In this document: piece after piece, positions 21,103-29,658 of the stretch | Layout: every line of letters starts with the position of its first letter | How positions within the stretch are numbered: position 1 is the stretch's first letter | Assembly (NCBI RefSeq): GCF_009827545.1 | Contig: NZ_WTYS01000001.1 | Coordinates: 2,691,772 to 2,755,771, forward strand | DNA length: 64,000 bases | Reading direction: 5' to 3' | Source of the DNA: Pontixanthobacter gangjinensis | GTDB lineage: Bacteria; Pseudomonadota; Alphaproteobacteria; Sphingomonadales; Sphingomonadaceae | Program-made: the position numbers and the translations under genes | The notes under the pieces: generated by a model | What the model saw: only the letters and a program-made list of their open reading frames with translations | Told to the model about the DNA's origin: nothing | Databases searched by the model: none

Positions 21103-22089
21103 TCAGAGGTGACGAAGTAATTTCTTGATAAAGTCACCAATCTTATCAAGCTCGGTATCGACTACAGCATCAATCGGTTTGAATTCCGTTCCATCAAAAT
21201 AGCGCGGATTGCTGCGCTGTCCGTCAGGGCTTTTGTGATCGACATCGATTGAATGGCGCCAGAAATCCGCATGGTTCTTCCATTTGATCCTATCGACAAG
21301 TTCAGGCGCGGTGAACCAGATATTCCATGACAATTTGTTGCCGGATTTTAGCAGGTTTCCTGCGCCCAGATTGAACGCGTCAACGATCAGCTGGTTGAAT
21401 TCATCGACCAACTTATTGCCCGTTGGTTCAACATCACCAATTTGAACTTCGATATTGGCAACATCCCAAGCCTCATCCACATGCCGAGCAAATTCCGGGC
21501 TCTTGAAGCGCGTGATCTCTCCTTGAACGAACGGGAAGATCGGTTCTTCGGAATGGTCATCATGACTGGTCTTGATTACAATCGCATGATCCTTATCAAA
21601 CGGAAACGGCCAACCTGTTTGTTCAAACAGCCACATAAGCGTTTTGACGATCTTCTTCTCTTTGGCGTCTTCGGTGAACCAGACTTTACCAACCACTGTC
21701 ATATCGGCGGCCATAGTCTTGGTATCTTCATCGACCCAACCGCGTTGGCCGGTGACTGTGACCTCTACATTCAGGTCGCCGAAGATGGGAGAGTAAGTGC
21801 CCTGCTGCGGACAAATAATCGAGAAGATCCTCCCTTCTTTTGTGTATCCAATCCGCGATATTTGCGGGGCGAATTTCTGGAAGCAGCGGGTCTCTTCATC
21901 GCCCGGGACAGTTTGCCAGCTAAATTCTGGCCATTTGATGCTTTCCATGCGGTCCAGCTTGTCAATATTGGCCATGTTGCAAAGCATTGGCAAGGATTTG
22001 AGATCAGGGTCAGGGTATGCAAATGCTGGATTGGATTGGGCAAAGCCGCCCACCCAACCAGGAGCCGGACTATCATTTGAATCATTCAT
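21103..22089 (-). CDS. Unrecognised 328-aa protein, last gene of the isoprenoid cluster
   Basis: I do not recognise this family. The protein starts MNDSNDSPAPGWVGGFAQSN, has no signal peptide or membrane segment, and is rich in aromatic residues (for example SIKWPEFSWQTVPGDEETR, LMWLFEQTGWPFPFDKDH, LSWNIWFTAPELVDRIKWKN). It is mostly soluble beta-type in appearance with acidic patches. It is encoded 130 bases after the cyclic-nucleotide-binding flavoprotein, in the same direction as the prenyl synthase and flavoenzyme genes, and may have its own promoter. AAAGGA lies ten bases before the start. Its GC content appears lower than the surrounding genome (25 of 60 in bases 21541-21600). A role in the isoprenoid pathway is guessed from position only. 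Confidence 0.7.
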   Translation of the reverse strand: MNDSNDSPAPGWVGGFAQSNPAFAYPDPDLKSLPMLCNMANIDKLDRMESIKWPEFSWQTVPGDEETRCFQKFAPQISRIGYTKEGRIFSIICPQQGTYSPIFGDLNVEVTVTGQRGWVDEDTKTMAADMTVVGKVWFTEDAKEKKIVKTLMWLFEQTGWPFPFDKDHAIVIKTSHDDHSEEPIFPFVQGEITRFKSPEFARHVDEAWDVANIEVQIGDVEPTGNKLVDEFNQLIVDAFNLGAGNLLKSGNKLSWNIWFTAPELVDRIKWKNHADFWRHSIDVDHKSPDGQRSNPRYFDGTEFKPIDAVVDTELDKIGDFIKKLLRHL

Positions 22090-22219
22090 AATTTTTCGGT
22101 TCCTTTAAAAAAGATATTTATAACGACCGAATTATTGCTCATCACTCTGTGGTGAATTGGATCAGAAGATAGGCTTTGCATGCGAAGTCGATTGGATACT
22201 TGCGACACACAAACATTAT

Positions 22220-23845
22220 TTATTCTGATTCAAGGGGCGGGGCATTAATGTGGTTCCAGATAGCGGACATAACTACGGAGCCCTCGCCTACAGCAGACGC
22301 CACTCGCTTTACAGAACTGGCTCTCACGTCCCCGACCGCAAATATTCCTTTGGTTGAGGTTTGGAACGGCGATGCTTCGCCTATCATCTCACCCGTCTTG
22401 ACGAAATTTCTGTGATCCAGATCCACCAATCCTGAAAGCCAGCAGGTATTGGGTTCAGCCCCAACCATAACAAACAGCCCGCCGCAGTCCATTTCCGTTT
22501 CGCCCTCAGGCGTTTCAAGAATGATTTTTTCCAACCATTTTTCACCATGCAGCGACGACACCTTTATGCCGTAATGAACGGTAATTGCCTCATCCGCCTC
22601 CAGCCGGTCACGCAAATAGGCTGACATGGAGTCAGCCAGACTATCGCCGCGGATCATCATGTGAACATGATGGGCAGTTCGTGACAAATACATTGCTGCC
22701 TGACCCGCTGAATTGCCACCACCAATAATAACTACGGGCTTCTTGTTACAGAACCGCGCTTCCATATCGGTGGCAGCATAGAACACCCCTGCTCCTTCGA
22801 ATTCCTCCCGACCTTCAAGCGGAAGCTTTCGGTATTGCACACCGGTCGCAACCAATACGGCCCTTGCGCATATTTCGTCACCATCATCCAACGTGGCACA
22901 AAAATTTCCGTCGTCATTTTTGACCATCGCTTCAACCCGCCGCGGCATTGCAAAACGGGTGCCGAATTTCATGGCTTGGATTTGTCCGCGGTAAACAAGG
23001 TCTGCGCCGGAAATGCCGGTTGGAAAACCCATATAGTTTTCAATTCTGCTTGATGTGCCTGCTTGTCCGCCGATGGCAACATCCTCGACCACCAGCGCGC
23101 ATAGCCCCTCTGCTCCGGCATAGACGGCCGCGGCCACACCAGCCGGTCCGCCACCAACAATCAGGACGTCCACATCGAGGCCCTTCTCAACATCAAGATC
23201 TAACCCGAGCAAGCCCGCAACTTTACGCGGCGTAGGTTCTTCCACGACATGGTTCTTTGCATAAATTACCGATGGTTTGTGCGATGCGATCGTGCAGATT
23301 TCAGCGGTCTCTTCATCGTCGCTATCCATGTCAAATGATTGGAAGGGAATACGGTTGCGCGAAAGGAAGCTGGCAATATCCTGTATTTTCGCATCGCGGT
23401 CGGCACCGATTAACTTGATTGAACTGCGGTTGGCCTCGAACTGTTTGCGCCGCCTCGCGGAAAACACGGTAATTATGTGATCCGACAGCTCGGGAATGTC
23501 GCTCATCAATTTGAGCATTTCTTCTCTCGGGACTTCCAAAGTCGATGTCGATTTGGCCGCCCGCATCGGAATTGTCATGGTTCCGGCGTTTAGAAATGCG
23601 ATCTCGCCCATAAATTGGGTTGGACCCAACACGGCTTCTCCCCAACGCTCCCCACTGTACGGGTTAACCACCTCGATTTCGCCGTCGAGTACATAGACGA
23701 ACCTGTCCATTGCATCGCCGACTTTGGCAACCATGTCTCCAGCAAGATAGCTGACTTCCTTGGCAATTTCACGAATGGCGGCAACATGCTTGTCACTAAG
23801 CGGCTGACGCTTCATCACCTCAAGATCGGCACCAATCGATTCCAT
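22220..23845 (-). CDS. Cyclic-nucleotide-binding domain fused to thioredoxin-reductase-like FAD oxidoreductase
   Basis: A 541-aa fusion. Residues ~15-130 form a CAP_ED-type domain (VYVLDGEIEVVNPYSGERWG, FMGEIAFLNAG). A glutaredoxin-like linker follows (~140-215). Residues ~220-535 are a thioredoxin-reductase-like flavoprotein: VLIVGGGPAGVAAAVYAGAE (FAD), GGQAGTSSRIENYMGFPTG, VVIIGGGNSAGQAAMYLS (NADPH) and GIFAVGDVRA. Where thioredoxin reductases carry the CxxC this protein reads FYAATDMEARFC, so disulphide reductase activity is not expected. It may act as an NADPH-dependent flavin reductase or electron donor to the two flavoenzymes upstream. The cyclic-nucleotide-like domain could bind an effector or be structural. 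Confidence 0.88.
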   Translation of the reverse strand: MESIGADLEVMKRQPLSDKHVAAIREIAKEVSYLAGDMVAKVGDAMDRFVYVLDGEIEVVNPYSGERWGEAVLGPTQFMGEIAFLNAGTMTIPMRAAKSTSTLEVPREEMLKLMSDIPELSDHIITVFSARRRKQFEANRSSIKLIGADRDAKIQDIASFLSRNRIPFQSFDMDSDDEETAEICTIASHKPSVIYAKNHVVEEPTPRKVAGLLGLDLDVEKGLDVDVLIVGGGPAGVAAAVYAGAEGLCALVVEDVAIGGQAGTSSRIENYMGFPTGISGADLVYRGQIQAMKFGTRFAMPRRVEAMVKNDDGNFCATLDDGDEICARAVLVATGVQYRKLPLEGREEFEGAGVFYAATDMEARFCNKKPVVIIGGGNSAGQAAMYLSRTAHHVHMMIRGDSLADSMSAYLRDRLEADEAITVHYGIKVSSLHGEKWLEKIILETPEGETEMDCGGLFVMVGAEPNTCWLSGLVDLDHRNFVKTGEMIGEASPFQTSTKGIFAVGDVRASSVKRVASAVGEGSVVMSAIWNHINAPPLESE

Positions 23846-23933
23846 TCCACCAACCCTCTAAATCGCAGATGGACAAGCATCTAACCAGATGTCTGCGCGA
23901 CACAAGTAATCTAACCCTGCAATATCTGTCCGC

Positions 23934-24875
23934 TTATCGCCGAGAGAGTTCGCGCGTGTAATCCACCAGTTCAACCAGAACCCCGGCATCAGCGGTTTGT
24001 GTTTGCGCCTGCCATTTTGCATCTTTTGCCAATTTATCCAGATGGGCGTCGGCTGCCGGTAATTGGGCGATCATGGCATATTTGATTTTTTCCAATTCGT
24101 CAGATGTCGGAGTTGGCTTGCAAAACAAATCACAAATCTCGCGGTCTTGAATGGCGAGCGAAGCCGGAAGCGTCAAAATGCCGTCGCGCAAGTCCTCTTC
24201 ACCGCCACCGCCAAGTCCCTCCAGCCCTTTCACATCGCCCACATCATCGCAGCCGTGATAAAGCATTCCGATCAAGCGGCCGAATTTCCGCAAACTGTCA
24301 TCGCGGGTTGCAAGACAGGCGCAGGTTTCGAACATGGAGCCGGTGTCTTCGCCGGCAATTTGCTCCCAATCGGCTATGCCCAGCGGTTGGCGACGCAGTC
24401 GCCACTGCGCGCATTCGGCAACCCCCAGCCGCTTCACCAAGTCAGCAAACAGGCGGATGTCATGCGGGTCTTGCGCGGACATATCAAAACCGTCAGCAAC
24501 TATGAAACCCGAAGCCATGAGTGCTGGAAGTAACCCGAATTTTGCATGGAGCGAAGGTATCCCGCGCCGCTCGTCGGACTGATCGAGAATATCATCAACG
24601 ATCAATGTCATATTATGCATCATCTCAAGCACTGCGGCGGAGCGGATCATTGCATCGGGTATTTCCCCGCCAAACTTCGCCCGGTAACACCCGAAAATTG
24701 TCAGAGGCCGGAAATACTTCGACCCTTCGACAAATTGCCATTTCAACATAGGCTCCAGATCAGGGCCGACACCTTCAATCCACGAATTCAGAAAATTGCG
24801 GACACGGTCCATCTCCTCGACGAAACCGAGATCGGCGACAATACCTGCAGTCACTGTATCCAATCCTGAATTCAA
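23934..24875 (-). CDS. Polyprenyl diphosphate synthase-like protein with missing lysines
   Basis: A 313-aa all-helical isoprenyl synthase relative. It keeps the isopentenyl-diphosphate site GSKYFRP (51-57), the first Asp-rich motif DDILDQSDERRG (94-105) and the second, DDVGD (210-214). However, the conserved Lys of the KT motif is Asp177 (GEDTGSMF), and the Lys of the GKxTLP motif is Ile233 (DGILTLP). Both lysines normally hold the allylic diphosphate, so it could be an altered synthase, a non-catalytic subunit or a cyclase-like enzyme. The start is TTG at 24875 with AAAGGA eight bases upstream; no in-frame ATG is nearer. It sits between two flavoenzyme genes in the same operon. Confidence 0.85.
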   Translation of the reverse strand: MNSGLDTVTAGIVADLGFVEEMDRVRNFLNSWIEGVGPDLEPMLKWQFVEGSKYFRPLTIFGCYRAKFGGEIPDAMIRSAAVLEMMHNMTLIVDDILDQSDERRGIPSLHAKFGLLPALMASGFIVADGFDMSAQDPHDIRLFADLVKRLGVAECAQWRLRRQPLGIADWEQIAGEDTGSMFETCACLATRDDSLRKFGRLIGMLYHGCDDVGDVKGLEGLGGGGEEDLRDGILTLPASLAIQDREICDLFCKPTPTSDELEKIKYAMIAQLPAADAHLDKLAKDAKWQAQTQTADAGVLVELVDYTRELSRR

Positions 24876-24921
24876 CGCACATTTCCTTTGTTAAATCGTG
24901 CAATTCCAGTGGTTTGCTGCT

Positions 24922-26895
24922 CTAGCGCTTTGGCCGCCAGCGGCGTTTGTGGGAATTTTCCAGAGACGAAGCATCCGCCACTTTGATACCTGCGCGCTTT
25001 TGACATTGTTCGCTGGCATACGATGCGAACTCGCCCAAAACCATTAGCGCCGCGGCACCAAATCCTATAAATTTGTCATCGCTATGGTCGGCTGGGCCTA
25101 GGGGCCTCTCATCTTCATCAGGCGACAAAGCTGCGTCCCAGAACCAATAGGCGTTGGTCCACCAATCAACCACATATTGCATCGGCAACAATGCGAGATG
25201 TTCCGATTGCAGCGAATTGCCCAAGGCCTTCAATTGGCTCCGTCCATCATCAGGCGAAATCTGCGTCCACGCTTTGGCTGCATAGGCAAAGGGCATGAGC
25301 GCTAGCTTAGCCGCACGCAACGCTGTGTTGCCATAAGTGGTGTGTTTGATGATAGAAATCGGTTTGGCAGGCATCGGTACGCTGCGCCGTTTCGCATCAT
25401 ATTCCTGCACCAGAGAAGCCGCTCTAACGCCGCTTTCAACCGCGCCTTCAACCGTTGCCATATCGACATTACTACGCGCCAAATCGCCAGCAAAAAACAA
25501 CCCAGGCAGAGTATCTGGATACGCCGGTGCCGGTCGCCAATCCCAACTGCCAACATCATTCAGAAACAGCGGATAATCCGCATTCGACCGGAAATAGGTT
25601 TTATCCCAATCCACATCGCAATCACGATCGCCATACTTTTTACCGACGTTGATCTCGGGGTAATATTGCTTGAGTTCCAGCAACATCGCTCTGACCATTT
25701 CCTCCGGTTCATTGCTCGGCAGGCCTTCTCCTTCAGAAGCCGCCAAAACCAGAGCGGTCTTTCCGTCAAATTTTGAAGCAGGCCATAATTGAGCGATATC
25801 TACCACCGACAGGCCGTATTTCGCTTTTGCGAGGCCGATGTTTTCGGCAGGAAAACCAGGCAATTTACGCTTCAGATAGAGGTTCAGCACCGGAATTGGC
25901 ACCGAACGCAGCCTGCGCGTCTGTGCCAGCGACGGTTCTCGCTTTACAATCCGGTCACCCGGACTGCTTTCATCCCCGCCGAAAATAAGCTCGCAAAGCG
26001 GAATATTGGGAAGCGCCATTACCACTGCATCAAAATGCTGCGATTTCTTCGCCGCCTTGCTGCCAGTCCTGCCCCATTCCAATTGCGTACCGCTATCCAC
26101 CAAGCGCACGCTGGAAACCTCAGTCGACACTCGAACATCGGCGCCCAGCGTTGCCAACAATTCAGCGATCGGTGCGATTAAAGCGTCTTGCAGGCTATTC
26201 TTGAGCATATGCGCGAATGGCGCCCCATTGGGGAAGGACAAAGTATGCCGCAAGAAATCTTGATAGGTAGCTGCGGTGGTTTGCTCAGCCTTAATCGACC
26301 AGATTAGCTGGAGCATGTAATTCATCATTTCTGCAACCGGTTCTGTCGATGTGCTTGATGAATACAGAAAACCGTTCACGCTCAATTCGTCGAGCTGTTT
26401 GTAACCCTCTCGATTGAACGGATATCCAGCCAAATCGAGCGTGGAATATCCCATAAGCAGCATTTCGGCGGGCGACATAACCCCTGATTTCAGATTGGCA
26501 ATGATCGCGTCCATTTTCGTGGGATTGAACAATTCACGGTAGTCAGTTGAGCCTTGTTCGAGCATTTTGACGCCCGCCCGAGCGTCGAAATTGGCCTCTC
26601 GGCTGAGGCCCAATTCGTTCTCATAAAGGTCCCAGAAATTTTCGTACCAATCGCAGAACATGTGCGGGTAAACATCATGCTCGATCCCATTGACCCGGCG
26701 CGAAGACATGTTGCCGCCCAACCTCTCGTTACGTTCAAACAATGTGACCGAATATCCGGCGCGGAGAAGCTTTATTGCAGCGGTCAACCCAGCGATGCCG
26801 CCGCCGACGATCGCGATGGAGGTTTGGTTTGCGGACTTCTCTAATTCGGCCGTCTTCGCTTTGGCCGCCGCTTTGCGTTTAGCTGGACTATTCAT
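24922..26895 (-). CDS. Phytoene-desaturase-like FAD-dependent oxidoreductase with C-terminal extension
   Basis: A 657-aa flavoprotein of the amine-oxidase/phytoene-desaturase type. After a basic Ala/Lys-rich N terminus, the FAD-binding GGGIAGLTAAIKLLRAGYSV and ERNERLGGNMSSRRV (about 30-68) are clear, and the C-terminal FAD motif is PGLFFAGDLARSNVDMATVE (~490-510). Residues ~520-657 form an extension not expected in desaturases (PMQYVVDWWTNAYWFWDAAL). Its ATG overlaps the stop of the geranylgeranyl-reductase-like gene (ATGA at 26892-26895), so the two are translationally coupled. It may desaturate or dehydrogenate a polyisoprenoid; hydroxysqualene dehydroxylase or carotene desaturase chemistry are alternatives. 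Confidence 0.87.
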   Translation of the reverse strand: MNSPAKRKAAAKAKTAELEKSANQTSIAIVGGGIAGLTAAIKLLRAGYSVTLFERNERLGGNMSSRRVNGIEHDVYPHMFCDWYENFWDLYENELGLSREANFDARAGVKMLEQGSTDYRELFNPTKMDAIIANLKSGVMSPAEMLLMGYSTLDLAGYPFNREGYKQLDELSVNGFLYSSSTSTEPVAEMMNYMLQLIWSIKAEQTTAATYQDFLRHTLSFPNGAPFAHMLKNSLQDALIAPIAELLATLGADVRVSTEVSSVRLVDSGTQLEWGRTGSKAAKKSQHFDAVVMALPNIPLCELIFGGDESSPGDRIVKREPSLAQTRRLRSVPIPVLNLYLKRKLPGFPAENIGLAKAKYGLSVVDIAQLWPASKFDGKTALVLAASEGEGLPSNEPEEMVRAMLLELKQYYPEINVGKKYGDRDCDVDWDKTYFRSNADYPLFLNDVGSWDWRPAPAYPDTLPGLFFAGDLARSNVDMATVEGAVESGVRAASLVQEYDAKRRSVPMPAKPISIIKHTTYGNTALRAAKLALMPFAYAAKAWTQISPDDGRSQLKALGNSLQSEHLALLPMQYVVDWWTNAYWFWDAALSPDEDERPLGPADHSDDKFIGFGAAALMVLGEFASYASEQCQKRAGIKVADASSLENSHKRRWRPKR

Positions 26896-28388
26896 GAGCC
26901 GAATTCCATCTCAAACGGCCCTTTCAGCCGTGGGTTTTCTTTCTGAGTGAATGATGGGCCAAGTTTTGATGCCGCGTGAACAATATCGCCCAGCCAATCC
27001 ATGTGCCAGCCAACATCGGCGCTGACAGAGGCACGCCAGCCGCACTGCCACAGGTTCCAATCACCGACAAATCCATCCAGCGGCACCCCGCGACCAGCCA
27101 GCAAATCAGCGAGAACTGCTTTCCCTCCATCCAGAATATGCCGTGCAATCCCATACCAAATTTGCGCCGCCATCGCCGCTGGTTGGACATTCAACCCGCC
27201 GAACCCCGTTCCTGAAAGTCGAGCAAATTCGCGGTCATGCTGCGCCCGCTCGAAACCTTGCTGGGTCATGCTCAGGAAGAAATCGCCAAAATGGCGGTTG
27301 CGCATCATCGTTGCGTAGAAGCTGAGATACAGCATACCGTGATCGAAATAGGACCGAAAGTCCTGATCAAAACGGGCAAAGTCGGCCTGCTCGAACCGGC
27401 CACGCTCCAGCGCCTCAGCGATTGTCTTCGCACCAATGATGGAGGACTCCATGCCTTGCGTGATCCCCTCAGCTGTCATCGGATCAACAAATCCACCAGC
27501 GTCACCCACGAGCAATCCGCCCGCGAAATGATTGCGCGTAATCCCGCCATACATATGCACCGCGCCACCCAGAGGCTTGCTGCACATGGTCGCATTGGCA
27601 CATGAAGGATGACGGAATTTCAGGCGGTCTAGGCTTTCGCGAAAGCATTTCTGGAGCGAGATATCAAATCGTTCGGTCGTTTCGCTCAGCATTCCCATCC
27701 CAGCATTCGCGCGCCCATCACCAGCAGGAAAGACCCAGCCATACCCGGGGTAGTGATCCTCATCAAACCAGATACAGGCTTCGCTCTCATCCATCTCGAC
27801 CCCTTCGAGATAGACGCGCTGCGAAATGCCAATGTGCTTCTTATCATCGCGCCGCAGCCCAGCATGTGCAGCAACAACAGATTGGACTCCATCTGCGCCA
27901 ACCACAACGGGCGCAATTAATTCTGAAGTGCCCTTATTTGTCTTGGTTGTGACGCTCATCAGGCCGTTTTCACGGCGTACTTGCTTGACCGCGGCACCCT
28001 GAAAAACGCTTGCTCCGGCGCGCGCGGCGTTTTCAAGCAGTGCCGTGTCCAATTGATCCCTCGGCACCACATGCCCGTACGGCGGCATCGCCATTTCACC
28101 TTCGTAATAGGCCACTTCATTCTGATACGCGATGTGTGGTCCGTAATAGGCGCGGACTTTATTGATTGCAGTGCGTCCGCCAAGGTCCAATGCTTCGGTA
28201 CAGCCCATTTTGTCGATGATCCGCAGGCCAGCGGGCTCAACAAAATCTCCGCAGACTTTCTCTCTCGGGAAAGTGCTCCGTTCGATCACAGCAACCGATA
28301 TGCCACGCGATGCAAGCGACCAAGCCATCGTCGATCCCGATGGGCCACCGCCCACGACGATGACATCAAATCTGCCAGACGATTTCAT
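26892..28388 (-). CDS. Geranylgeranyl reductase family flavoprotein
   Basis: A 498-aa FAD protein of the geranylgeranyl reductase family, which saturates double bonds in prenyl chains. FAD is bound by VIVVGGGPSGSTMAWSLASR and ERSTFPREKVCGD (residues ~9-48); the family motif YPGYGWVFPAGDGRANAGMG (~215-235) and the second FAD motif GLLVGDAGGFVDPMTAEGI (~295-315) are present. Typical members are about 400 aa; here the last ~100 residues are an extra Trp-rich region (GDWNLWQCGWRASVSADVGW). It is the first gene of the five-gene left-pointing cluster, and about 170 bases of non-coding sequence separate it from the preceding terminator. The substrate is unknown. Confidence 0.88.
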   Translation of the reverse strand: MKSSGRFDVIVVGGGPSGSTMAWSLASRGISVAVIERSTFPREKVCGDFVEPAGLRIIDKMGCTEALDLGGRTAINKVRAYYGPHIAYQNEVAYYEGEMAMPPYGHVVPRDQLDTALLENAARAGASVFQGAAVKQVRRENGLMSVTTKTNKGTSELIAPVVVGADGVQSVVAAHAGLRRDDKKHIGISQRVYLEGVEMDESEACIWFDEDHYPGYGWVFPAGDGRANAGMGMLSETTERFDISLQKCFRESLDRLKFRHPSCANATMCSKPLGGAVHMYGGITRNHFAGGLLVGDAGGFVDPMTAEGITQGMESSIIGAKTIAEALERGRFEQADFARFDQDFRSYFDHGMLYLSFYATMMRNRHFGDFFLSMTQQGFERAQHDREFARLSGTGFGGLNVQPAAMAAQIWYGIARHILDGGKAVLADLLAGRGVPLDGFVGDWNLWQCGWRASVSADVGWHMDWLGDIVHAASKLGPSFTQKENPRLKGPFEMEFGS

Positions 28389-29022: not shown

Positions 29023-29658
29023 TTATTCGGCCAATAGCTCGATCATAACCTCATTGCGCCGCATTGGACCCGGCACCCACGGCGCATCGTAAAATGCATA
29101 AGTAGCGTCACCAGCCGTTTCCATGCCTTGCTCAACCAAATATGTCTGTAGTTCCTTTGTGCGCGCATCGAGCGAGGCCATTCCGCCGCGACCCGAGAAC
29201 CTGATCGCCGCAAATTTTCGCGCGGGAATCTCTCTTATCTCCACCTCAGAATTGGCCGGTCTTGGTAAAGTCATCATCGTATATTCGGACGGCATGATGA
29301 AGCGGACTTGCCAAACACCATCGGTTTGCTGCTGAGTGACCGGAGCGGTCATGGCAATGTCTTCGCTCGCCGGCTGTTGCGTCACGGGCGAAGTCATAGC
29401 GATTTCTTGCGAGGCGATATTGTTGCCGAAGATGTAGTCAGCGATGATTCGGAAGCCACGGTTCATCGCTGTGCTGCGGTCGCCTGTCACCTTAGCTTCA
29501 GCGACGATCATCGGTTCATATGCGCGGATCTCGATATTGCCTGCCGTCTGGAGGATAGCATAGGCTGGCTCCTCCACGTCATTAGCCGCAGCGCCCCATG
29601 AGACTGCACCGGCCGCAAGAACTCCAATTGCCGCAAATGCGGCCCAGCGCTTTTTCAT
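29023..29658 (-). CDS. SOUL family heme-binding protein
   Basis: A 211-aa exported protein. An N-terminal signal peptide/anchor (KKRWAAFAAIGVLAAGAVSW) precedes a SOUL/HBP domain with typical features: IEIRAYEPMIVAEAKV, GFRIIADYIFGNN, EIAMTSPVTQQ repeated as DIAMTAPVTQQ, VRFIMPSEYT and the C-terminal MRRNEVMIEL. SOUL proteins bind heme or other tetrapyrroles, although bacterial roles are unclear. Length and domain order are normal. Confidence 0.9.
   Translation of the reverse strand: MKKRWAAFAAIGVLAAGAVSWGAAANDVEEPAYAILQTAGNIEIRAYEPMIVAEAKVTGDRSTAMNRGFRIIADYIFGNNIASQEIAMTSPVTQQPASEDIAMTAPVTQQQTDGVWQVRFIMPSEYTMMTLPRPANSEVEIREIPARKFAAIRFSGRGGMASLDARTKELQTYLVEQGMETAGDATYAFYDAPWVPGPMRRNEVMIELLAE

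What the first reader, a model, noticed from the sequence alone, without database searches (positions are those of the whole stretch)
21103..28388. Five-gene cluster that looks like an uncharacterised isoprenoid-modifying pathway
A prenyl diphosphate synthase-like gene lies in one left-pointing run with two flavoenzyme genes of the geranylgeranyl-reductase and phytoene-desaturase families (overlapping ATGA), a cyclic-nucleotide-binding/flavin oxidoreductase fusion and an unrecognised 328-aa protein. No phytoene synthase, squalene synthase or known terpene cyclase accompanies them. Seen: gene order, overlaps and motifs. Known: these families act on prenyl chains. Inferred: a pathway that builds, desaturates or saturates an unusual polyisoprenoid, with the TrxR-like protein as possible electron donor.
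Basis: partly seen in the sequence, partly recalled or inferred. Interest (0 to 1): 0.75.

Follow-up and report, generated by a model that had tools for sequence, protein, structure and literature searches.

The report
Orphan three-gene isoprenoid enzyme operon
A small group of mostly marine bacteria carries three linked genes for an unknown terpenoid-type product; one of them is a prenyl-chain synthase whose active site is altered in the same way in every carrier examined, so it probably no longer does its textbook reaction.

Summary
The five genes are there as described: one left-pointing run, ATGA overlap included. They are not one conserved five-gene pathway. The unit that travels together is three genes: geranylgeranyl-reductase-type E (26892-28388), HpnE/CrtI-type flavoenzyme D (24922-26895) and polyprenyl-synthase-like C (23934-24875). 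C occurs in 15 of 397 genomes of the family, in four genera; E-D-C order is kept in all 14 carriers whose contig reaches that far, in different gene surroundings. The cyclic-nucleotide/TrxR-like gene B adjoins C only in Pontixanthobacter (7 of 8), and the 328-aa gene A occurs in 3 of 8. C is not an ordinary prenyl synthase: it keeps both Asp-rich metal motifs, but in 15 of 15 orthologues two lysines, present in 49 of 49 comparison synthases, are Asp and Gly. In 6 of 7 carriers outside Pontixanthobacter, a large AAA_16 protein with a cyclase or TIR domain lies beside the triad. It is neither the carotenoid locus, which lies elsewhere, nor a hopanoid locus. Product and reaction are unknown. Best reading: a dedicated isoprenoid-tailoring operon, probably moving as a unit, built round a neofunctionalised synthase.

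The parts
26892..28388 (-). Gene E: geranylgeranyl-reductase-superfamily flavoenzyme, 498 aa; first gene of the conserved triad
   Evidence: TIGR02032 200.9 bits, over cut-off; YxWxFP (216-221) and Cys46 invariant in 10 of 10 aligned orthologues, both named as GGR catalytic features in PMC12004948
24922..26895 (-). Gene D: HpnE/CrtI/PPOX-type FAD enzyme, 657 aa, with Lys/Ala-rich N-terminus (by eye) and a ~150-aa C-terminal region of no known family
   Evidence: PF01593 113 bits; HpnE model 117.7 bits but below cut-off; fold search best hits protoporphyrinogen oxidase and phytoene desaturase, from a weak model (mean pLDDT 50.7, TM-scores about 0.2-0.35); C-terminal piece has no Pfam match at E<=10
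23934..24875 (-). Gene C: polyprenyl-synthase-fold enzyme with altered active site, 313 aa (TTG start)
   Evidence: PF00348 97.9 bits; KT Lys -> D177 and LGK Lys -> G223 in 15 of 15 orthologues against Lys in 49 of 49 other synthases; dN/dS median 0.119
26892..26895 (-). ATGA overlap of E stop and D start
22220..23845 (-). Gene B: cyclic-nucleotide-binding domain fused to a TrxR-like FAD/NAD oxidoreductase, 541 aa; genus-specific neighbour, not part of the core
   Evidence: the CATC of the genome's own TrxR falls on YAAT; beside C in 7 of 8 Pontixanthobacter and in 0 of 7 other carriers
21103..22089 (-). Gene A: 328-aa orphan, patchy rider
   Evidence: 3 of 78 relatives (own genome included), all in the same genus; the other two copies are 79 and 60 % identical; no family match over cut-off

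Best explanation
E-D-C is a dedicated three-enzyme isoprenoid-tailoring operon that is inherited, and at least once probably transferred, as a unit. C is a neofunctionalised trans-prenyl-synthase-fold enzyme. It still has the residues that bind the Mg-diphosphate cluster and the Lys/Arg of the isopentenyl-diphosphate side, but it has lost the two lysines that normally hold the allylic diphosphate (their role is recalled), so it most likely does not build long chains. It probably acts on FPP or GGPP supplied by the housekeeping IspA-like enzyme, ionising it to a rearranged or cyclised terpene or transferring it to something else. D then oxidises, isomerises or dehydroxylates the chain, and E reduces double bonds, giving a partly saturated C15-C20-type terpenoid. 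Shown: gene order, co-inheritance, families, altered but conserved active site, purifying selection. Inferred: substrates, order of steps, product. A and B are not needed.
For: E-D-C order in 14 of 14 carriers with enough contig (one has an N gap inside D). C in 15 of 397 family genomes, the weakest carrier at 1.3e-164 and nothing between that and 1e-60 (at most five candidates scored per genome). Pairwise identities of C, D and E track each other (r 0.88-0.95) better than they track ispB (0.49-0.70) or ispA (0.59-0.77), over 28 non-independent pairs. G319 and G370 share the triad at 94-96 % while their ispB and ispA are 84-86 % identical, and G027 of that genus lacks C, which suggests transfer as a unit. 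In C, 14 columns that are the same in at least 48 of 49 comparison synthases carry another residue in all 15 orthologues, a single fixed residue in 12 of the 14, while all six Asp of the two DDxxD motifs, K53, R56 and R103 are kept; the clade has a long stem and support 1.0; median dN/dS is close to that of ispB (0.119 v 0.123). Each of the 8 carriers examined has three PF00348 genes, C plus two others. E has the GGR motifs.
Against: C keeps the Arg (R56) of the GxKxxRP motif; loss of the equivalent Arg helps turn a fungal GGPP synthase into a terpene synthase (passages of PMC7484799; the equivalence is my reading), and its second motif is DDxxD, not an NSD triad, so it does not show the published marks of synthase-to-cyclase conversion. 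No product, substrate or expression data. Families alone do not prove an isoprenoid substrate for D, whose fold also serves amines and porphyrins. The role of the two lysines in holding the allylic diphosphate is recalled, not tested here.
Confidence: 0.42

Rival explanations
1. C is still a chain-elongating prenyl synthase with unusual diphosphate binding; it makes a specific chain (C20-C35) that D and E desaturate and saturate.
For: FARM, SARM, the K and R of GxKxxRP, and R103/G105 kept in 15 of 15; nearest branch in the tree is an actinobacterial synthase of a menaquinone cluster, though on a long branch.
Against: KT Lys, LGK Lys, the Gln before SARM, the GD pair and a third Lys are each replaced in 15 of 15.
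Confidence: 0.22
2. C is a non-catalytic or modulating partner that binds IspA or IspB and changes their product length, as small subunits of heteromeric synthases do (recalled).
For: Loss of two lysines with strong conservation elsewhere.
Against: Both metal motifs are fully kept in 15 of 15; non-catalytic subunits usually lose them (recalled).
Confidence: 0.12
3. The triad modifies pre-existing carotenoids or quinone side chains made elsewhere in the genome.
For: The genome has a crtY-crtI-(LOG-like)-crtB locus; GGR relatives act on menaquinone and sterol chains; D resembles phytoene desaturase.
Against: 382 of 397 family genomes lack C although carotenoid pigments are described for many genera of the family (passages of PMC7660246); it does not explain why a changed prenyl synthase is always linked; predominant quinone of the genus is plain Q-10 (same paper).
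Confidence: 0.12
4. All five genes form one pathway, with B as electron donor and A as an accessory protein.
For: Same strand and short gaps in this genome.
Against: A in 3 of the 8 genomes of the genus; B absent from G007 and G141, with one in-frame stop in G001, and not beside the triad in any carrier outside the genus.
Confidence: 0.07
5. The triad is the output of a signalling or defence-like module: the adjacent AAA_16 protein with TIR or cyclase domain senses something and the enzymes make a signal or membrane change.
For: The AAA_16 gene lies beside the triad in 6 of 7 carriers outside the genus and is absent from 10 of 10 non-carriers in the same call; in a family sample 3 of about 314 non-carriers have a distant relative (two candidates scored per genome; Fisher p 1.2e-8, assuming that G141 was in that sample).
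Against: 0 of 7 Pontixanthobacter carriers (0 of 8) and not G141 have it; PADLOC hits of these proteins are only to the TIR or cyclase domain; the two forms differ in domain make-up.
Confidence: 0.08

Closest known systems
HpnC-HpnD-HpnE squalene/hopanoid loci
   Same: D is nearest to HpnE among NCBIfam models (117.7 bits); isoprenoid flavoenzyme next to a class I prenyl enzyme
   Different: Below the HpnE cut-off; own genome has a single SQS_PSY gene, best matched by CrtB; shc is listed as absent from Pontixanthobacter, Allopontixanthobacter and Parerythrobacter (passage of PMC12583986)
Carotenoid crt loci (crtE/crtB/crtI/crtY)
   Same: Prenyl synthase plus CrtI-like flavoenzyme
   Different: No phytoene synthase at the locus; crtI_fam model 41 bits against a cut-off of 238; the genome's crt locus is elsewhere
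Geranylgeranyl reductase family (archaeal GGR, MenJ, ChlP/BchP, myxobacterial sterol C-24 reductase Bsr)
   Same: E passes TIGR02032 and has YxWxFP and the active-site Cys
   Different: The C-terminal ~150 residues have no Pfam match; fails the MenJ, BchP and DGGGPL model cut-offs
IDS-like terpene synthases of fungi and insects
   Same: A prenyl-synthase fold with changed catalytic residues (passages of PMC7484799, PMC13143122)
   Different: C changes other residues (KT and LGK lysines) and keeps the Arg and DDxxD that many of those change; no relationship shown
Gromomycin cluster of Streptomyces
   Same: Polyprenyl synthetase groD and a reductase groE in a cluster that antiSMASH did not recognise (passages of PMC12105684)
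   Different: No Rieske, P450, PAP2 or cyclase genes noticed among the triad's neighbours (by eye); no HpnE-type enzyme in the paper's Table 1

Membership tests
trans-isoprenyl diphosphate synthases | PF00348 domain over gathering score | tested here: met
   97.9 bits, cut-off 27
trans-isoprenyl diphosphate synthases | two Asp-rich DDxxD motifs | tested here: met
   D94, D95, D98 and D210, D211, D214 in 15 of 15
trans-isoprenyl diphosphate synthases | Lys of the KT motif | tested here: not met
   Asp in 15 of 15 C; Lys in 49 of 49 others
trans-isoprenyl diphosphate synthases | Lys of the LGK motif after SARM | tested here: not met
   Gly in 15 of 15; Lys in 49 of 49
trans-isoprenyl diphosphate synthases | chain-elongating activity | not testable with these tools
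   needs enzyme assay
IDS-like terpene synthases | loss of the IPP-side Arg of GxKxxRP | tested here: not met
   R56 in 15 of 15; marker from passages of PMC7484799
IDS-like terpene synthases | NSD triad in place of SARM | tested here: not met
   DDVGD kept; the paper says the triad is not absolutely required
geranylgeranyl reductases | TIGR02032 over cut-off | tested here: met
   200.9 against 158.8
geranylgeranyl reductases | YxWxFP motif and active-site Cys | tested here: met
   Y216, W218, F220, P221 and C46 invariant in 10 of 10; features from PMC12004948; that C46 is the equivalent Cys is by motif, not by structure
geranylgeranyl reductases | PF22578 GGR_cat over gathering score | tested here: not met
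   26.0 against 27, just below
HpnE hydroxysqualene dehydroxylase | TIGR03467 over cut-off | tested here: not met
   117.7 against 283.05
HpnE hydroxysqualene dehydroxylase | HpnC and HpnD in the genome | tested here: not met
   one SQS_PSY gene in G000; its best model is CrtB (299.8, cut-off 480, not reached), and HpnD (161.4 of 278.6) and HpnC (100.1 of 250.45) are not reached either
CrtI phytoene desaturases | TIGR02734 over cut-off | tested here: not met
   41.0 against 238.1
thioredoxin reductases (gene B) | redox CxxC | tested here: not met
   CATC of the genome's own TrxR falls on YAAT
thioredoxin reductases (gene B) | TIGR01292 over cut-off | tested here: not met
   220.5 against 343.45
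archaeal-type lipid loci | GGGP and DGGGP synthase genes | tested here: inconclusive
   none recognised by eye among the read neighbours; no genome-wide search was made

The most novel reading that the evidence does not exclude
C founds a new family of bacterial class I enzymes derived from chain-elongating prenyl synthases: the metal-binding Asp are kept, the two allylic-diphosphate lysines are replaced by a fixed Asp and Gly, and C-specific invariant residues (such as R159, R161, C185, C187, H207) appear. With D and E it makes an undescribed terpenoid, in three genera beside a TIR or cyclase AAA_16 sensor protein.
Probability: 0.3. Interest if true: 0.72.

Novelty: new variant of a known kind. 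Interest (0 to 1): 0.5.

Why it matters
Conversions of chain-building prenyl synthases into other enzymes are described in the passages read for fungi and insects; the literature searches made here listed no bacterial operon like this one. This is a compact, testable case: three genes, 15 natural variants and a clear set of replaced residues. It may also mark a product class that routine cluster tools miss, as happened with gromomycins. If C proves to be an ordinary synthase after all, it would show that two textbook lysines are dispensable.

Tried and rejected
Five-gene pathway: rejected from gene order.

Link to beta-oxidation: a CaiB-family CoA-transferase (looks like alpha-methylacyl-CoA racemase from memory; no NCBIfam model over cut-off) with ECH and thiolase genes sits about 4-6 kb from C in Pontixanthobacter, and the CaiB gene about 6 kb from E, on the other side, in the two g96 genomes. 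In 5 of 5 carriers of the other two genera it is distant or on another contig, so I do not count it as part of the system.

Hopanoid, squalene and carotenoid locus: rejected.

Wider relatives of C and D: none other than the window's own genome in 385 class genomes at 1e-35, in 398 phylum genomes at 1e-25 and, for D, in 318 class genomes at 1e-45. These searches score only a few first-look candidates per genome (up to five for C, three for D), and those samples show no match in the other known carriers, which I take to mean that they were not drawn. On plasmids: no C match at 1e-20; eight weak C matches at 1e-6, all under 60 % identity, three annotated polyprenyl synthetase, three ispB and two without annotation; no D match at 1e-10; no A match at 0.01. 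Phyla other than the window's could not be reached by the genome search. The scan of genome contigs returned 10 loci: seven titled Pontixanthobacter, Allopontixanthobacter or Parerythrobacter and three MAGs titled Erythrobacter, Erythrobacteraceae and Sphingomonadaceae; it sees only close relatives, and no locus matching the two g21 carriers was among them.

Structure: the model of A is unusable (mean pLDDT 38.8); that of D is weak (50.7) and its fold hits show only the broad family. Phasin-like reading of D's C-terminus: no Pfam support. D also matches two PADLOC models weakly over its FAD-binding start, which I read as generic. Promoter and terminator counts are near chance.

Literature: searches listed no paper recognisable as being on this gene set; two gave background only; PMC10040529 on Pontixanthobacter genomes has none of five terpene-related terms. 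Erythrolic acids and erythrazoles, Erythrobacter meroterpenoids with diterpene chains (structures recalled; only named in a passage), were a lead that could not be tested.
Full report
Identity of the window. The window is G000:C1:2691772-2755771 of a 2.888-Mb genome in one contig. The genus is inferred as Pontixanthobacter: same-genus genomes G003, G005, G006 and G007 have C at coordinates that match named Pontixanthobacter records L009, L010, L007 and L011.

Observation. A is an orphan with no family match over cut-off.

Conservation. A search for C in 397 genomes of the family gave 15 carriers at E<=1e-60, the weakest at 1.3e-164: all 8 seen of the genus, 3 of g16 (two of them Parerythrobacter by coordinate match), 2 of g96 (Allopontixanthobacter and an Erythrobacteraceae MAG by coordinate match) and 2 of an unnamed genus g21. 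In the class sample 1 of 385 (own genome; 1e-35) and in the phylum sample 1 of 398 (own; 1e-25). D in the class: 1 of 318 (own; 1e-45). In the loci fetched, E-D-C order is present in 14 of 14 carriers where the contig reaches far enough; the fifteenth (L008/G002) ends inside D, and one of the 14 (L016/G001) has a run of 100 N inside D. Genes around the triad differ between genera.

A and B are not part of the unit. A: 3 of 78 relatives, own genome included, all in the genus, 3 of 8 there. B: beside C in 7 of 8 Pontixanthobacter (not G007). A copy of 45 % identity or more exists in 13 of 15 carriers (split over two contigs in G370, with one TAG in G001; those of G177 and G229, at 45 %, may be paralogues), none in G007 and G141, and none beside the triad in any carrier outside the genus. 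In G022, B lies 2.2 kb from the CaiB-family gene and 2.2 Mb (contig coordinates) from the triad; in G319 both lie on contig C22 while the triad is on C17; in G202 all three are far apart. B also lacks the CxxC of thioredoxin reductase: CATC in the genome's own TrxR falls on YAAT.

Co-inheritance. For 8 genomes with ispA and ispB in hand, the 28 pairwise identities of C, D and E correlate with each other at 0.88-0.95, with ispB at 0.70, 0.49 and 0.64, and with ispA at 0.77, 0.59 and 0.64; the pairs are not independent. The two g21 carriers share C, D and E at 96.4, 95.5 and 94.2 % although their ispB and ispA are 86.0 and 84.3 % identical, and a third g21 genome, G027, lacks C. This suggests movement of the triad as a unit. 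All three genes are under purifying selection: median dN/dS 0.119 for C (73 of 78 pairs with dS<3), 0.279 for D (68 of 78), 0.184 for E (74 of 78); ispB 0.123 (23 of 28) and ispA 0.156 (19 of 28).

C is a rebuilt synthase. Each of 8 carriers examined has three PF00348 genes, C and two others. I aligned 15 C proteins with 49 other synthases (46 from the 24 genomes plus E. coli IspA, IspB and one Tsukamurella enzyme; one of 47 loci gave no candidate). The Lys of the KT motif (IspA 181) is Lys in 49 of 49 and Asp in 15 of 15 C; the Lys of LGK (IspA 237) is Lys in 49 of 49 and Gly in 15 of 15. Fourteen columns that are the same in at least 48 of 49 others carry another residue in all 15 C (S52 or P, Y54, V/I93, M120, S122, G123, I125, A153, D177, M181, Y206, H207, G223, I233), while D94, D95, D98, D210, D211, D214, K53, R56, R103, E84, H87 and T178 are kept. 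Twelve of the 14 are a single fixed residue in C, which looks like a new active site, not decay. C forms one clade with support 1.0 on a long stem; its nearest neighbour there is a Tsukamurella synthase from a menaquinone cluster, a placement I do not trust because of the long branch. A termite study says that the Thr of the KT motif is conserved in all IDS enzymes and that changing it alters product formation (passages of PMC13143122); C keeps that Thr (T178). Against the terpene-synthase reading, C keeps the Arg whose change converts a fungal GGPP synthase (passages of PMC7484799).

E and D. E passes the GGR superfamily cut-off and has both catalytic features named in PMC12004948; it misses PF22578 by one bit. 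D is a phytoene-desaturase/PPOX-type flavoenzyme with HpnE as best NCBIfam model, below cut-off. The genome has a separate crtY-crtI-(LOG-like)-crtB locus and only one SQS_PSY gene; a survey lists Pontixanthobacter, Allopontixanthobacter and Parerythrobacter among genera without shc (passage of PMC12583986). So this is neither the carotenoid nor a hopanoid locus.

An unexpected companion. Beside the triad in G022, G177, G202, G229, G319 and G370 lies a gene for a 1064-1205-aa AAA_16 protein. The TIR-bearing forms also match TPR families, over cut-off in two of the three scanned; the g21 form scanned shows none. In the first four it starts with a TIR domain (three by Pfam, L014 by alignment), and the cyclase-like region that follows has lost both Asp that I take, from memory, for the metal ligands (the positions read E, R, R, S and P, H, H, H); in g21 there is no TIR, both Asp are kept, and the one scanned (L032) matches the cyclase family over cut-off. 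The two forms align over about 950 residues at 34 % identity. In one search it is found in 6 of 7 carriers outside the genus, 0 of 7 Pontixanthobacter carriers and 0 of 10 non-carriers. In a family sample of 328 genomes, two candidates scored per genome, it is found in 8: five carriers and three non-carriers (G085, G100, G179) with 27-33 % identity and no triad gene on the stretches read (the G179 contig is only 5 kb). Fisher p is 1.2e-8 without the Pontixanthobacter genomes and 3.4e-6 when they count as carriers without it, both if G141 was in that sample. The G141 locus has what looks, by eye, like the same acyl-CoA ligase next to the triad as G022 and G202, with the AAA_16 gene missing. I take it as a likely regulator, unproved.

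Mechanism and verdict. The best-supported account is a compact isoprenoid-tailoring operon in which C no longer elongates chains in the usual way, and D and E adjust the oxidation level of its product. What is shown is genetic and sequence-based; substrate, reaction and product are inferred. The literature searches made listed no description of this gene set, within a library that lacks most subscription papers. I rate it a new variant of a known kind, with moderate interest, higher if C proves to be a new class I enzyme.

Noticed in passing
L012:10938-14555, L014:10941-14471, L015:10939-14418, L034:3793-7401, L032:13238-16438, L033:792-3986: A family of AAA_16 proteins in which four members have a TIR domain and a cyclase-like region without the two Asp, and two have an apparently intact cyclase and no TIR: an output-domain swap beside the same triad.
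   Followed up: partly
L015:4213-6270 and L034:12423-14411: Proteins of 685 and 662 aa next to gene E in two g16 genomes with no Pfam match at 0.001 and no PADLOC match at 1e-5.
   Followed up: no
window 29023-29658: SOUL haem-binding protein (PF04832, 151 bits) just upstream of the triad in this genome.
   Followed up: no
L057:7089-11489 (G000 about 1.036-1.040 Mb): Carotenoid locus crtY-crtI-crtB with a short reading frame that looks like a LOG-type lysine-decarboxylase-like protein between crtI and crtB (that naming by eye).
   Followed up: no
L105 (G428:C58): A synthase-like protein with DDINN at the second Asp motif and an isolated branch in the tree.
   Followed up: no
G001:C17:6119-7729: Gene B carries one in-frame TAG in this genome: pseudogene or sequencing error.
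   Followed up: no
L012:1627-3936 and L014:1697-3979: Proteins of about 765 aa that look like two CaiB-type CoA-transferase halves fused, beside a gene best matched by an acetyl-CoA acetyltransferase model (scanned in L012 only, under its cut-off), upstream of the triad (fusion judged by eye).
   Followed up: no
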